The notes beneath the pieces are model-generated. The model was given only the letters and a program-made list of their open reading frames with translations, did no database searches and was not told where the DNA came from. Made by a program: the position numbers and the translations under genes. From an uncultured Odoribacter sp. (GTDB lineage Bacteria > Bacteroidota > Bacteroidia > Bacteroidales > Marinifilaceae), in NCBI GenBank assembly GCA_905204385.1, contig CAJKZL010000159.1, forward strand, positions 1-6,883: a stretch of 6,883 nt of DNA, read 5' to 3'. This document shows positions 1 through 4,655 of the stretch, one piece after another (positions within the stretch are counted from its first letter, which is position 1; every line of letters starts with the position of its first letter).

Positions 1-1972
1 CCTGGCCGAAAGGGAGTTCGAAGGGGCGGTCCCTTGATTCCAGCTCGATGCTGCCATCCACACCGGCACAAAAGATAACGACATCCGACTCGTGCGCCAA
101 ACGCAAAGGTTCTGAGAAATCCAGGTTGCCTTTGTAATCATATCCCATCCGGATCTCGGCAGGCAGGCTCCGTTGACTCAGATATTCCAAGCGTACCTGC
201 AAACGGGTGCCTTTTTGGCCTTTCACTGTCACTTGCCCGTAATCGAAAGACTGAGAATCCGAAGCATCCAGCAACAATTTATCGTCTATCCAAAGACGAT
301 AACCACCCTGAGCGTCCACAAAAAACAGAAGGCTGTCGTTTCTTTCTACATCCACATAGCCGTCCCATTCTACCCGATAATCATCTCCCAAATCTTTGAC
401 CGGTGAACTCCACCAGGAGAAGTCCACCTGCTTGTCCACACGCTCCAATACAGACTTCTTCCCCTCCTGCAGGGAAGAAGGAAGTAACCTCCCACCGCCA
501 TCATCCGTCCGTCCGGCTGCCTTCGCCTGTTGTTGTAAAAGTTCTTCCGAAACGATGTTCTCATCGTTATTCCCCTGCTTGTAGTATTTAGCCCGAAGGC
601 CGGCTTTTCCTGCTTCGGTCTTAAACACGCTGGTACGAAAAATCCGCTTTTTATAAGCATTGGAGATACCTTCTGAGTAATACACTTCAGCGTCAGGGTA
701 TTCAGCTTTGATGCCCTGGAGAATGGAAGTTATATGCCAGGGATGAACTTTCGAACTTCCGCCACCGCCGTAAGTAATGCCACTTACATCATGGCGCCTG
801 TCTGTCACGAGATTATGTGCCGCATTGGGGCCTATTACAGCTATTTTAGCGGTTTTCTTCAACGGAAGGATTCCTTCTTCGTTTTTCAATAAAACCATTC
901 CTTCCCTGGCGGCCTCATAAGCCATCCGATTGGCTCGAGGATTATAAAGAGGAATGGTTGCATCTTTTTGCGGACGGTCGAAGAAGCCCATTTCGATGCA
1001 AGTGCCATAGATCCGACGCACTTTCTCATCGATAGTTTCTTCCGTCACAATTCCCTTCCCGATAAGTGGCAACAACTTTTCTTTCACAAACCAGTCTTTA
1101 CTTCCCATTTCCAGATCCAGTCCATGGTTGGCGGCTTTATCGGCCGAATAAGTGCAAGCCCAATCGGACATCAGCATCCCTTTGAATCCCCAATCTTTTT
1201 TGAGAATATCGATCAAGTCTTTATTTTCAGTACAATACACGCCATACAGAGGATTATATCCTGTCATTACCGCTTTTACATCAGCTTTTTGCACGGCAGC
1301 CTTGAAAGGAGGCAGATAAATTTCGTGAAGGGGACGTTCAGAGACCTCCGAACTGACCCGATAACGGTCATATTCCTGATCGTTGGCCGCAAAATGCTTC
1401 ACTGTAGCGATGACTCCTCTCGCCTGTACCCCTTTAATAAAAGGTACAACCATTTCCGAAGAAAGATAGGGATCCTCGCCCAGGTATTCGAAATTGCGGG
1501 CGCCTTTAGAGGCACGATAGATATTTACCCCCGGTGCCAAAAGAAAATGAATGCCGCGGGCACGCCACTCTTGTCCATAGGCATCGCCGACACGGTTTGC
1601 CAAATCCCTGTTCCAGGAAGCAGCCAGCGCCAGCGCCGCCGGGAAAGCAGTCGCTTTTCCGAACTCACCCCAGGAAGCGACTCCCAAAGGTCCGTCTGCC
1701 AGTTTGAATGCAGGAATACCTAAACGCTCGCAAGGATGAAGGTAGAAATCCTGATATCCGGTCAGCAAATCGATCTTTTCCTCCAAGGTCATGCGTTGAA
1801 TCAAATCCTCCACACGTTCTTTTACCGGCAAGTCAGGACGACGGAACGGATAAGTCCGGGCGGTTATCCCTTTCCTGTCAAAGATACTTTCGGCAGGAAC
1901 AAATGACTTCTTATGAGCTTCTGCCAGGGTAGTCAGTTCTTTAACAATATCCTGATGCCTGGACGCAATGTT
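1..1972 (-). CDS. GH3 beta-glycosidase with inserted PA14 domain, partial; in-frame continuation of the sulfatase beyond its TAA, no start of its own
   Basis: I translated the minus strand codon by codon: 657 codons are open from 1972 to the left edge. The first ~30 codons are not GH3 but a sulfatase tail (NIASRHQDIVKEL, then LAEAHKK). The GH3 barrel begins near 1850 (YPFRRPDLPVKERVEDL, then MTLEEK). Family landmarks in order are ADGPLG (1682-1699), GARNFEYLGEDPYL (1463-1504), the KHFAAND substrate-binding segment (around 1382-1399), and the nucleophile motif MSDW with Asp at 1163-1165. The C-terminal alpha/beta domain starts near 900 and is split by a PA14 domain (about 601-125, opening GLRAKYY). 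The acid/base glutamate is probably in ELESRDR (26-46). By family knowledge it removes terminal beta-linked sugars from oligosaccharides; the sugar cannot be told. The first in-frame ATG (1790-1792) lies inside the barrel and GTG at 1811-1813 or TTG at 1829-1831 are no better, so none supplies a signal peptide. The C-terminus lies outside the window. Confidence 0.9.
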
Positions 1973-1975
1973 TTA
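1973..1975 (-). other. In-frame TAA separating sulfatase and GH3, probably a nonsense change
   Basis: On the minus strand the junction reads GGT GAA TTG TAA AAC ATT GCG, giving G-E-L-stop-N-I-A. Many S1 sulfatases have PGE-x-Y-[ND]-I/L-A at this point, so TAA takes the place of a Tyr codon and differs from TAC or TAT by one third-position base. The frame is the same on both sides, so this is not a frameshift. TAA also ends fecR here, so it is a normal stop in this genome. A sequencing error or low-level readthrough cannot be excluded. Confidence 0.75.
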
Positions 1976-3241
1976 CAATTCACCGGGTTCTTCTTCCACA
2001 TTGTATAGCACCGGGTTCTTATACACCACTTTCGCATCGTTGCCATAGGCCGATTTATAGGAAAAATGCACTTTATATTTACCTTTTCTTACTGCATACA
2101 AATCATTGCCACGATAAAAATAGAAAACATCCCGCTTGGATGCCGATTTATCACGGATGACATTCAACAGACTTACCCCATCGTAGATTCTATCCGAAGG
2201 CAACTCTACACCAGCCAATTCACAGCAGGTAGGCAACAAGTCCAAAGTACTTCCCATATCCGTTATTATCCCGGAATTGACCATTTTACCCCACATGATG
2301 CACGGCACCCGAAAACCTCCCTCGAACATAGAAGCTTTACCGTCTTTCAGCGAACCGGCCGAACCACCCTCTTGTCTGTAGGATAGCCATGGACCATTGT
2401 CGGAAGTAAAAATCACCAGCGTGTTGTCTGCGAGTCCGGTTTGCTGAAGAGCCTGTAATATCGATCCGGTGCTCCAGTCCAATTCTTCGATAGCATCCCC
2501 GTATTTCCCTCTGGCCGATTTGCCTTGAAAATCATCCGCTGCATACACAGGTATATGCGGCATAGGATGTGCTACATACAAGAAAAAAGGATGGTCCGCA
2601 TGGGATTGAATGTAACGCACTGCAGCCTGAGTCACCTGTTGTGTCAGATAATGCTGATCCGGCTCATGTTCTATTACCTTGTCCTGCTCATAAAGCATAT
2701 ATTCATAAGGATACTTTTTATTGCCTCTCTTTGCATTCTCTGCACGACTCATGTCATTGGAATAGGGATAGCCGTAAAAATAGTCGAATCCGTGTTGCAG
2801 AGGCATATACTGAGGCAAATGTCCTAAATGCCACTTGCCGATGCAAGCAGTGTGATATCCTGCTTGTTTCAGCAACTCCGGTATAGTGATCTCTTCCGAC
2901 GGCAAGCCACCCGGAGAATCGGGAAACAACACACGCTTGTCATTGCCATACATGCCTGTTCGTACCCCCAGCCGCCCGGTCAACAAGCCTGCACGGCTTG
3001 GAGAGGAAACGGATGCAGACACATAAAAGCTGGTCCACTTCTGCCCTTCCTGTGCCATCCGATCCAAATGAGGAGTTTTAATACTGGGATTTCCAAAACA
3101 GGAAAGATCACCATAACCCATATCATCACAATTAATGACGATAATATTCGTTTTGGTGTCGGCCGGCTGTTTGGCTATACACTCATATGCGTTGACAGTC
3201 AGCCCGCCGACACATAAACAGATCAAATTTAATGAGTTCAT
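1973..3241 (-). CDS. Secreted S1-family (arylsulfatase-like) sulfatase, Ser-type, ending early at an in-frame TAA
   Basis: The 422-residue product hydrolyses sulfate esters, probably on a sulfated glycan. The catalytic signature is S-S-P-S-R (79-83, followed by AGLLTGR), so Ser79 would be the residue oxidised to formylglycine by an anaerobic maturase (anSME). Other expected active-site residues are present: Asp39-Asp40 and Asp281-Asn282 (FTSDNGPW) for the metal, Lys136/His138 (GKWHLG), His229 (HPMPHIP) and Lys302. The N-terminus (LNLICLCVGGLTVNA) resembles a signal peptide cut near residue 19, but its n-region has no Lys or Arg. ATG at 3241 is the only usable start: an in-frame stop lies ~36 nt upstream with no ATG/GTG/TTG between. 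The end PVLYNVEEEPGEL falls just before the usual C-terminal helix, and that helix is encoded in frame after the stop. The truncated form keeps all catalytic residues and could be active. The sulfated substrate cannot be assigned. A GALNS/arylsulfatase-A-like subfamily is my best guess. Confidence 0.93.
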   Translation of the reverse strand: MNSLNLICLCVGGLTVNAYECIAKQPADTKTNIIVINCDDMGYGDLSCFGNPSIKTPHLDRMAQEGQKWTSFYVSASVSSPSRAGLLTGRLGVRTGMYGNDKRVLFPDSPGGLPSEEITIPELLKQAGYHTACIGKWHLGHLPQYMPLQHGFDYFYGYPYSNDMSRAENAKRGNKKYPYEYMLYEQDKVIEHEPDQHYLTQQVTQAAVRYIQSHADHPFFLYVAHPMPHIPVYAADDFQGKSARGKYGDAIEELDWSTGSILQALQQTGLADNTLVIFTSDNGPWLSYRQEGGSAGSLKDGKASMFEGGFRVPCIMWGKMVNSGIITDMGSTLDLLPTCCELAGVELPSDRIYDGVSLLNVIRDKSASKRDVFYFYRGNDLYAVRKGKYKVHFSYKSAYGNDAKVVYKNPVLYNVEEEPGEL

Positions 3242-3276
3242 TTCAGTGCATAATAAAATTAGGAATTTAATATTTA

Positions 3277-3289
3277 ATTATCTGATAAT
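3277..3289. repeat. 13-nt palindrome in the sulfatase leader
   Basis: ATTATC-T-GATAAT is a perfect 6-bp inverted repeat around one base, 36-48 nt upstream of the sulfatase ATG. Position and symmetry suit a regulator operator, but the DNA is AT-rich and short palindromes are expected by chance. Confidence 0.25.
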
Positions 3290-3370
3290 CAGTTGTTGGT
3301 TGTTTTATGAAATCTGGGAAATCAATAGGTTTAAAGAAAAGTTCGATGGCTTTTCTATGATGACTAATCT

Positions 3371-3387
3371 TAAGGTTTGTTGCAAAC
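3371..3387. repeat. Small palindrome GTTTG-TTG-CAAAC overlapping opposed -7-like elements
   Basis: Arms at 3375-3379 and 3383-3387 are perfect 5-bp inverted repeats. The right arm is part of the minus-strand TATGTTTG. The left arm belongs to a plus-strand TAAGGTTTG (3371-3379), which is one base longer than the TAnnTTTG consensus. The layout could be an operator or two face-to-face promoters, but the arms are short and this may be chance. Confidence 0.25.
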
Positions 3388-3390
3388 ATA
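3383..3390 (-). promoter_or_regulatory. Candidate Bacteroidota -7 promoter element for the sulfatase/GH3 unit
   Basis: The minus strand reads TATGTTTG, an exact match to the TAnnTTTG -7 consensus of Bacteroides housekeeping promoters. It would start transcription near 3376 and leave a 5' leader of roughly 135 nt. There is no good TTTG -33 box at the usual spacing; only a T-rich tract (complement of 3403-3409) lies there. The match alone is weak evidence. Confidence 0.35.
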
Positions 3391-3421
3391 GTAATTTATT
3401 TTAAAAAAAGTCATTTAATTT

Positions 3422-3459
3422 TTCACCCTAAAGGGAGGTTGGCGTGCATTTAGAGTGAA
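3422..3459. repeat. 11-bp imperfect inverted repeat upstream of fecR
   Basis: TTCACCCTAAA (3422-3432) and TTTAGAGTGAA (3449-3459) are inverted copies with one mismatch (C3427 against A3454) around a 16-nt loop. The repeat ends 35 bp before the fecR start. It may be an operator or a leader hairpin; nothing in the sequence separates these options. Confidence 0.4.
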
Positions 3460-3487
3460 TAAACCGGAAAAACAGACCGATTTATTC

Positions 3488-3504
3488 ATTTTACATGTTA
3501 AAAT
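3488..3504 (+). repeat. AT-only hairpin with the fecR start codon in its loop
   Basis: ATTTTA (3488-3493) and TAAAAT (3499-3504) are perfect 6-bp inverted arms around the loop CATGT, which contains the proposed ATG. With only A-U pairs the RNA stem would be weak. It might slightly affect start choice between 3495 and 3513. Confidence 0.25.
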
Positions 3505-4655
3505 CGTCTGATATGGATGAATCTTTAAAAAGCAGCCAAGAAAGAATATTCCATAAACTGTGGGAAGTACTTTATTCGGATAAAGACTCCCCCGATGCTG
3601 TGCAGGACCCCCGGATACGGCAGGCAATCCGCCGGATATACGAGGTGGTGAGTGCCCCGGACGGGGATTACGAACTCGTCTGGGAAAAAATCGACCGGGA
3701 GATCCGGGAAAAGGAAAGGACAAAGCATCGGCTGAGGCTTCGGATGATGCGCTATGCCGCCCTGTTTCTTTTGCCCTTGCTTTGCGGGGGCATTGCCTGG
3801 TATGTTTGGAGACCTGCCGAAACAGGGATGTCTCCGGAAATGGCCGGAGATGGGCGTCCCCGCCAGGGTATCGTCTTGACTTTGGGAAACGGACAACGGC
3901 TGAATTTGCAGGAGAAACCCTCCGGGGAGTTGTGGGAAACCGCCACGGTGGGGATTCGTAAGGATAGCCTGAACGGCATCGTGTATGAGGGCCGCGGGAC
4001 AGGAGAGACTACGGCGGCCTTTCACACCCTGGAGATTCCCGTTGCTGCCGATTATCGGCTGCGCTTATCCGACGGCACGGTCGTTTATCTGAATTCCGGA
4101 ACCACCCTTCGCTATCCCGAAGTATTTGCCGGAAACGAACGGAAAGTGTACCTGGAAGGGGAGGCTTATTTTGAGGTAGCCGAAGATTCGTTACATCCTT
4201 TCAAAGTCATCGTGGACCGGCTGGAAGTAGAGGTGCTGGGGACTCATTTCAACGTATATGCTTATCCGGAACAACGCGGCATAGCGACCACTTTGGCCGA
4301 AGGGAAAGTCAGGGTGACCGATGGTGGGAGAGAAGTGGTCCTCAGGCCGGGGGAGCAGGCGTGGGCCACGGACGACGGTTTACAGGTCAGGGAAGTGGAT
4401 GTGAAAGAATTTACCGGTTGGAAGGACGGACTGTTCAGGTTCCGACAGATGCCTTTGAAGGAGATGATGATCCAGGTTTACCGATGGTATGGAGTCGAAG
4501 CGGACTTTGCCGACAAGGGATTGGAAACAATTACGTTTACGGGAGTCATCAATAAGAATCTTCCGGCCGGAGAATTGTTCCGGATTATCGAAAGCGTTGT
4601 GGACGTCCGCTTTACGAAGGATAGAGAGAATCATGTAATGATTACTACTAAATAA
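3495..4655 (+). CDS. FecR-type anti-sigma factor (DUF4974 C-terminus)
   Basis: This 386-residue inner-membrane protein has the layout of Bacteroidota FecR proteins. A charged cytoplasmic N-terminus (1-83) would hold the ECF sigma factor. One membrane segment lies at about 87-105 (YAALFLLPLLCGGIAWYVW). The periplasmic FecR domain spans about 178-275, with the family-typical LSDGTVVYLNSGTTLRYP, YLEGEAYFEV and LGTHFNVYAYP. A DUF4974-like C-terminal domain spans about 313-384 (FRFRQMPLKEMM to the end). In the known pathway this region senses the STN domain of a loaded SusC-type receptor and frees the sigma factor; the STN-bearing receptor starting 102 bp downstream fits that role. An in-frame ATG at 3513 (MDESL) is an alternative start; neither has a clear Shine-Dalgarno site. 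No sigma gene precedes it here, although sigma-fecR-susC is the common order, so its sigma partner must be encoded elsewhere. Confidence 0.95.
   Translation: MLKSSDMDESLKSSQERIFHKLWEVLYSDKDSPDAVQDPRIRQAIRRIYEVVSAPDGDYELVWEKIDREIREKERTKHRLRLRMMRYAALFLLPLLCGGIAWYVWRPAETGMSPEMAGDGRPRQGIVLTLGNGQRLNLQEKPSGELWETATVGIRKDSLNGIVYEGRGTGETTAAFHTLEIPVAADYRLRLSDGTVVYLNSGTTLRYPEVFAGNERKVYLEGEAYFEVAEDSLHPFKVIVDRLEVEVLGTHFNVYAYPEQRGIATTLAEGKVRVTDGGREVVLRPGEQAWATDDGLQVREVDVKEFTGWKDGLFRFRQMPLKEMMIQVYRWYGVEADFADKGLETITFTGVINKNLPAGELFRIIESVVDVRFTKDRENHVMITTK

What the first reader, a model, noticed from the sequence alone, without database searches (positions are those of the whole stretch)
1..3241. Sulfatase and GH3-PA14 enzyme form one polypeptide frame, a possible bifunctional glycan-degrading fusion
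The sulfatase tail continues in frame past its stop (NIASRHQDIVKELTT, LAEAHKKSF) and, after a linker of about 15-20 residues, enters the GH3 barrel. There is no intergenic space, second signal peptide or credible GH3 start. If translated through, the product would be at least 1080 residues, exported once, and would couple removal of sulfate to cleavage of a beta-linked sugar. I know of no characterised sulfatase-GH3 fusion, though I cannot search. Seen: shared frame, motifs, no gap. Known: both families act on glycans. Inferred: joint action on one sulfated substrate.
Basis: partly seen in the sequence, partly recalled or inferred. Interest (0 to 1): 0.72.

Follow-up and report, generated by a model that had tools for sequence, protein, structure and literature searches.

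The report
Sulfatase-GH3 fusion gene with private stop
A bacterium carries a joined enzyme gene, one half that should remove sulfate from sugars and one half that should cut sugar chains, but in this copy a stop codon lies between the halves that related copies do not have.

Summary
The shared frame is real: on the minus strand a 422-codon S1 sulfatase (3241-1973) ends in TAA, and the same frame runs on, open, through a GH3-PA14 enzyme to the window's edge. The fusion is authentic: five uninterrupted homologues (1273-1327 aa, 75-99% identical over the junction) carry both enzymes, the same 19-residue linker, and a sense residue where the window has its stop. The joint is a whole sulfatase plus a GH3 without its leader. 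The stop is private: over 1,080 residues the window differs from P0002 only there and five residues upstream, at a 99%-conserved column. It is a very recent lesion or a sequence error; I cannot tell which. Relatives that lost one half also exist. Likely role, inferred: a periplasmic enzyme that desulfates a terminal sugar and then cleaves it, as the S1_25-GH78 hybrid P36 does (PMC8511951). Sulfatase-glycosidase fusions are published (PMC6388578); ten paper searches, five of them naming GH3, showed no GH3 partner.

The parts
1973..3241 (-). S1 sulfatase half, 422 codons plus stop; ends before its C-terminal domain does
   Evidence: PF00884 3.3e-64; PF14707 reaches profile position 67 of 127 here against 107 of 127 in intact P0002
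3170..3241 (-). N-terminal hydrophobic leader, probable signal peptide (by eye, no predictor run)
   Evidence: sequence; the leader family is shared with fusions and with three GH3-only proteins
2993..3007 (-). Ser-type sulfatase motif, residues 79-83 (that it is the formylglycine motif is recalled)
   Evidence: column 79 holds S in 98 and C in 25 homologues
1988..1990 (-). codon 418, second private difference from the nearest relative
   Evidence: one residue in 121 of 122 homologues with a letter, another in the window
1973..1975 (-). in-frame TAA, codon 423
   Evidence: sense residue in 122 of 122 homologues with a letter at this column
1877..1972 (-). rest of the sulfatase C-terminal tail, after the stop, ending in SIFD
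1820..1876 (-). 19-residue linker between the sulfatase end and the GH3
   Evidence: 19 residues in 6 of 6 fusion rows
1010..1729 (-). GH3 N-terminal (barrel) domain
   Evidence: PF00933
1163..1165 (-). predicted GH3 nucleophile Asp, residue 693 (MSDW; role recalled)
   Evidence: in relative P0013 this SDW aligns with SDW of 7ms2, 8j9f and 8va7; invariant in 5 of 5 intact fusions
176..451 (-). PA14 insertion in the GH3 C-terminal domain
   Evidence: PF07691
2..898 (-). GH3 C-terminal domain, cut by the window's edge; predicted acid/base Glu at 38-40 (role recalled)
   Evidence: PF01915; alignment
3495..4655 (+). neighbour: FecR-type anti-sigma factor, divergently transcribed
   Evidence: PF04773, PF16344
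4758..6881 (+). neighbour: SusC-type TonB receptor with STN domain, runs off the window
   Evidence: TIGR04056 367.7 bits against a cut-off of 368.25; TIGR04057 53.5 against 46.2

Best explanation
The locus is a gene for a single exported two-enzyme protein, an S1 sulfatase joined to a GH3-PA14 glycosidase, interrupted in this copy by a private in-frame TAA. In intact copies one signal peptide would carry both enzymes to the periplasm. The sulfatase, after maturation of its serine to formylglycine, would remove sulfate from a terminal sugar, and the GH3 would then cut off that unmasked sugar. In the window as read, only a sulfatase lacking its last ~32 residues would be made, and the GH3 would be lost or left unexported. 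Shown: frame, domains, intact homologues, shared joint, private stop. Inferred: export, order of reactions, shared substrate.
For: Five uninterrupted fusions, P0002 and P0004-P0007, 75-99% identical over the junction, each with Sulfatase, Sulfatase_C, GH3, GH3_C, PA14 and Fn3-like; these clusters stand for 53 member sequences and 71 contigs (15/3, 3/1, 7/1, 6/1, 22/65). Same joint and a 19-residue linker in 6 of 6 rows. Active-site columns of the sulfatase (choice of columns recalled) are kept: 39, 40, 83, 136, 229, 281, 282 and 302 show one residue in all homologues with a letter, 138 in 123 of 124, and 79 is S in 98 and C in 25. The GH3 catalytic Asp and Glu align with solved enzymes. The window's GH3 half is residue-identical to intact P0002 over 657 residues, so it has not decayed. 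A characterised analogue, Formosa P36 (S1_25 + GH78), desulfates and then cleaves at the non-reducing end (PMC8511951, passages).
Against: No biochemistry. None of the five fusions has an organism name in the listing (sources lgn, ena, jgi; P0002 blank), and I saw no DNA of any of them. No full-length junction match in six searches of species genomes, though no known positive genome served as a control. Most listed relatives of either half are single enzymes. The model of the joined protein was too poor to use. The window itself does not encode the full chain.
Confidence: 0.8

Rival explanations
1. The stop is a sequencing or assembly error; the organism's gene is intact.
For: Only two residue differences from P0002 in 1,080, five residues apart; two random changes fall that close in 0.9% of draws. 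One hits a column with one residue in 121 of 122 homologues, the other a column that is sense in 122 of 122. No residue difference elsewhere.
Against: A real multi-base mutation or a very recent nonsense change looks the same. The frame is otherwise clean in the window's other long genes, and no reads or DNA of P0002 were available.
Confidence: 0.45
2. The stop is real and recent: one more loss in a fusion lineage in which single-half forms occur.
For: Sulfatase-only P0237 is sister to the window and P0002 in the sulfatase tree (100/99); the six fusion rows alone are rejected as a clade (p-AU 0.0013). GH3-only P0008 and P0043 group with the fusions (97/98), and P0008, P0009 and P0043 carry a leader like the fusion's sulfatase leader.
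Against: The stop lies 32 residues before the natural sulfatase end, so it damages the sulfatase too, unlike P0237. P0002, 99% identical, is intact. The GH3 data do not reject the six fusions as a clade without P0008 and P0043 (p-AU 0.26), and the tree result for P0237 would also fit two separate joinings.
Confidence: 0.5
3. Two ordinary neighbouring genes brought together only here by a recent deletion.
For: The joint has the shape that such a deletion leaves: whole sulfatase, GH3 without leader. A distant sulfatase (42%) followed by a separate GH3 gene exists in L071.
Against: The same joint and linker length occur in five other proteins down to 75% identity, so the joining is not private to the window.
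Confidence: 0.03
4. Programmed stop read-through or recoding yields both sulfatase and full fusion.
For: The open frame after the stop is kept.
Against: None of 122 homologues with a letter there has the stop. TAA ends FecR in the same window. No Rfam family reaches its gathering score in the window.
Confidence: 0.02

Closest known systems
P36 of Formosa agariphila, S1_25 sulfatase + GH78 rhamnosidase hybrid (PMC8511951, passages read; PMC8360166, one passage read)
   Same: One polypeptide with an S1 sulfatase and an exo-glycosidase in a member of the Bacteroidetes; the two domains do consecutive steps at the non-reducing end.
   Different: Other glycosidase family (GH78), an ulvan locus of a marine bacterium; activities measured, with the domains analysed separately.
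Sulfatase-GH fusion genes of Kiritimatiellales and relatives, with GH10, GH32 and GH29 partners (PMC6388578, two passages read); multi-domain sulfatases of Planctomycetes (PMC4807772, passages read)
   Same: Gene fusions of a sulfatase and a glycoside hydrolase inferred from sequence.
   Different: No GH3 partner in the passages seen.
Standalone S1 sulfatases of the same subfamily (P0237 and others) and human GALNS (4fdi)
   Same: Whole sulfatase half and active-site columns; GALNS is the best solved match (300.9 bits).
   Different: No GH3. GALNS is distant, so substrate transfer is weak.
Standalone GH3-PA14 proteins of Phocaeicola faecalis type (P0013)
   Same: Whole GH3 half, 80% identical over the part in the window (L001).
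   Different: Own leader, no sulfatase joined.

Membership tests
S1 formylglycine sulfatases | Pfam Sulfatase match above cut-off | tested here: met
   217.5 bits, cut-off 25
S1 formylglycine sulfatases | [C/S]-x-P-S-R motif (recalled) at the catalytic residue | tested here: met
   residues 79-83
S1 formylglycine sulfatases | metal and sulfate ligand columns (recalled) kept | tested here: met
   ten columns counted
S1 formylglycine sulfatases | subfamily number (SulfAtlas) | not testable with these tools
   no SulfAtlas models on hand
GH3 with PA14 insertion | PF00933 and PF01915 with PA14 inside the C-terminal domain | tested here: met
GH3 with PA14 insertion | catalytic Asp and acid/base Glu (roles recalled) | tested here: met
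   alignment of relative P0013 to 7ms2 and 8j9f; same residues invariant in the five intact fusions
GH3 with PA14 insertion | a named GH3 specificity (NCBIfam equivalog) | tested here: not met
   best model 272 bits for the window's cut GH3 (cut-off 1250), 494 for P0002 and 499 for P0007 (cut-off 1300)
Sulfatase-glycosidase hybrid enzymes | both enzymes on one uninterrupted chain | tested here: inconclusive
   met in 5 of 5 intact homologues; not met in the window as read, because of the TAA
Sulfatase-glycosidase hybrid enzymes | both activities, on one substrate | not testable with these tools
   needs assay

The most novel reading that the evidence does not exclude
An undescribed S1 sulfatase-GH3 hybrid enzyme family, probably of Bacteroidales, that arose once by exact joining of two whole genes, couples desulfation to cleavage of the same terminal sugar, and is pruned back to either half in some lineages: to the sulfatase alone (P0237), to the GH3 alone under the sulfatase's leader (P0008/P0009, P0043), and in the window by a stop codon.
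Probability: 0.45. Interest if true: 0.5.

Novelty: new variant of a known kind. Interest (0 to 1): 0.42.

Why it matters
Fusions are natural hints about which enzymes work on the same molecule. A sulfatase tied to a GH3 suggests that some glycan reaching these bacteria bears a sulfate on a sugar that a GH3 then removes, which can be tested with one recombinant protein. The single-half relatives give matched sets (fused, sulfatase-only, GH3-only) for asking what the physical link is worth.

Tried and rejected
Structure model: the one job finished with mean pLDDT 50.8 and pTM 0.37, too poor to say how the two active sites face each other; I ran no fold search on it. Genome context of an intact fusion: not obtained. 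The genome-contig scan gave 47 loci, none with both halves joined. The viral-contig scan matched nothing. Plasmid search: three partial hits at 70.7-72.8% identity, covering 57, 40 and 5% of the query. The window's own genome is not held, so reads, depth and the rest of the GH3 gene could not be checked. A Bacteroides-type promoter pattern (recalled) matched once, inside the SusC gene, and the sigma-70 scan of 1500-3600 found fewer sites than shuffles; neither bears on the finding. Programmed read-through was considered and set aside. Naming the organism: among genomes searched, FecR and SusC are closest to an unnamed family reached through handle G807 (SusC 77% in G948); I do not name it.

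Rows left out: the quick GH3 tree took 57 chosen of 115 GH3-only rows listed and lost four of them (P0055, P0088, P0102, P0103) because a motif search missed them; the careful GH3 tree used 16 chosen GH3-only rows; the sulfatase tree used the first 57 of 120 rows listed. P0009, a near copy of P0008, was in no tree. The leader test scored 109 of the 115 GH3-only rows; the others lacked the motif or a long enough leader.

Full report
What is there. Read on the minus strand, positions 3241-1973 encode an S1 sulfatase of 422 codons ending in TAA. The frame then stays open to the window's edge, giving 1,080 codons with one stop. Pfam finds Sulfatase before the stop and GH3 N, GH3 C and PA14 after it. 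The Sulfatase_C match breaks off at profile position 67 of 127 in the window but reaches 107 in intact P0002, so the stop cuts into the sulfatase itself, not into the linker. The first in-frame start after the stop is TTG at 1831, without a leader.

The fusion is real. A search with residues 330-620 of the read-through protein listed 120 of 7,337 matches (only the 7,998 candidates sharing most words were scored). Five of the 120 span the junction without a break: P0002, P0004, P0005, P0006 and P0007, 1273-1327 aa, at 99, 83, 82, 76 and 75% identity; the other 115 are GH3-only. A second search drawn from the sulfatase half of P0002 listed 120 of 4,278 matches: the same five and no other row with GH3 domains; the rest are longer sulfatases, some with other domains, such as GH32 in P0160 and a GH43 match in P0199. 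All five fusions have the full domain set, including an Fn3-like end that lies outside the window. The linker is 19 residues in 6 of 6 rows. Of 28 standalone sulfatases printed, 26 end in SIFD plus 1-9 residues, one in PLFD plus one, and one (P0294) is longer; GH3-only proteins printed there begin their mature part at or near a YPF-type stretch. So the joint is whole sulfatase to mature GH3.

The stop is private. Window and P0002 differ at two of 1,080 residues, 418 and 423. Among 125 relatives aligned (five fusions and the 120), 122 have a letter at column 423 and all 122 are sense; at 418, 121 of 122 share one residue that the window lacks. Two random changes fall within five residues in 0.9% of draws. 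This points to one local disturbance: a fresh mutation or a flaw in the sequence. P0002's sources are shown blank, which the tool reserves for proteins of the window itself, so it may come from the same or a very close organism; I could not see its DNA.

History. In the sulfatase tree of 63 rows the six fusion rows (window included) fall with three standalone ones (P0237, P0240, P0242) in a group with support 95/94, and P0237 is sister to the window and P0002 at 100/99. Holding the six fusion rows together alone is rejected (p-AU 0.0013). Fusions plus P0237 form one side of a branch, but weakly, 71/38. In the careful GH3 tree of 22 rows the six fusions group with GH3-only P0008 and P0043 (97/98), unresolved inside; the fusions alone as one clade are not rejected (p-AU 0.26). 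In the larger quick tree of 59 rows P0006/P0007, the other fusions with P0008 and P0043, and seven Phocaeicola-type GH3-only rows form one unresolved group. So the GH3 trees do not force the GH3-only forms inside. The leader does better: P0043 (score 55) and P0008 and its near copy P0009 (51) match the fusion's sulfatase leader, against a median of 24 over 109 GH3-only proteins and a next best of 34. My reading is one joining, then loss of the GH3 at least once and of the sulfatase at least once. Two independent joinings are not excluded by the trees, but the identical joint and linker length speak against them.

Spread. A 139-residue junction query gave no full-length match in 399 genomes of the family of G001, 123 of the family of G004, 393 drawn from the order of G001, 56 of the family of G807, 45 of the family of G961 and 268 of the family of G959 (E up to 1e-24, 1e-20; some genomes recur between calls). 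The seven matches reported (G001 twice) cover only one half. No genome known to hold the fusion was available as a control, and in some genomes only ten candidates were scored, so this is weak evidence of rarity. None of 47 loci of the genome-contig scan has both halves joined; L001 and L002 have a very distant sulfatase (24-27%) about 4 kb from the GH3 on the other strand. One locus, L071, has a distant sulfatase (42%) followed on the same strand by the start of a separate GH3 gene with a leader of its own, which breaks off.

How it likely works. The sulfatase has the Ser form of the motif that is converted to formylglycine (conversion recalled). The GH3 keeps the Asp and Glu that align with solved enzymes. 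The best solved sulfatase matches are GALNS and arylsulfatase A; no NCBIfam specificity is reached for the GH3. The closest working model is Formosa P36, whose sulfatase domain desulfates the terminal rhamnose and whose GH78 domain then removes it (PMC8511951). I infer the same order here: desulfate, then cleave, in the periplasm.

Novelty. Sulfatase-GH fusions are published (PMC6388578, PMC4807772, PMC8511951; passages). In ten paper searches, five of which named GH3 (12, 18, 25, 43, 88), I saw no sulfatase-GH3 fusion. Most hits were seen only as listings; two searches listed 15 of 32 and 15 of 41. Word searches inside PMC6499787, PMC10154612, PMC8406133 and PMC5066984 showed none either. The library lacks most subscription papers. 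I rate it a new variant of a known kind.

Noticed in passing
window 3242-3494; L072 6478-7059: In genome G948 a gene that looks by eye like a sigma factor lies directly upstream of FecR; in the window that place holds the divergent sulfatase gene and no such ORF. This may mark an insertion point.
   Followed up: partly
L011 8001-9855: The GH3 relative in Phocaeicola coprophilus DSM 18228 aligns in two overlapping pieces in different frames, so it looks frameshifted.
   Followed up: no
P0003: A 1064-aa GH3 protein with its N-terminal part repeated, possibly an assembly duplication.
   Followed up: no
L012; plasmid records NZ_CP018938.1 and OY725998.1: GH3 relatives lie on records called plasmids of Bacteroides fragilis (47% protein identity; 71.2% DNA identity in pieces) and Phocaeicola massiliensis (72.8% DNA).
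   Followed up: no
L071 3-1256: A distant sulfatase and a GH3 as separate tandem genes, the GH3 broken shortly after its start.
   Followed up: partly
P0160, P0199: Other long sulfatases carry GH32 or GH43 matches.
   Followed up: no
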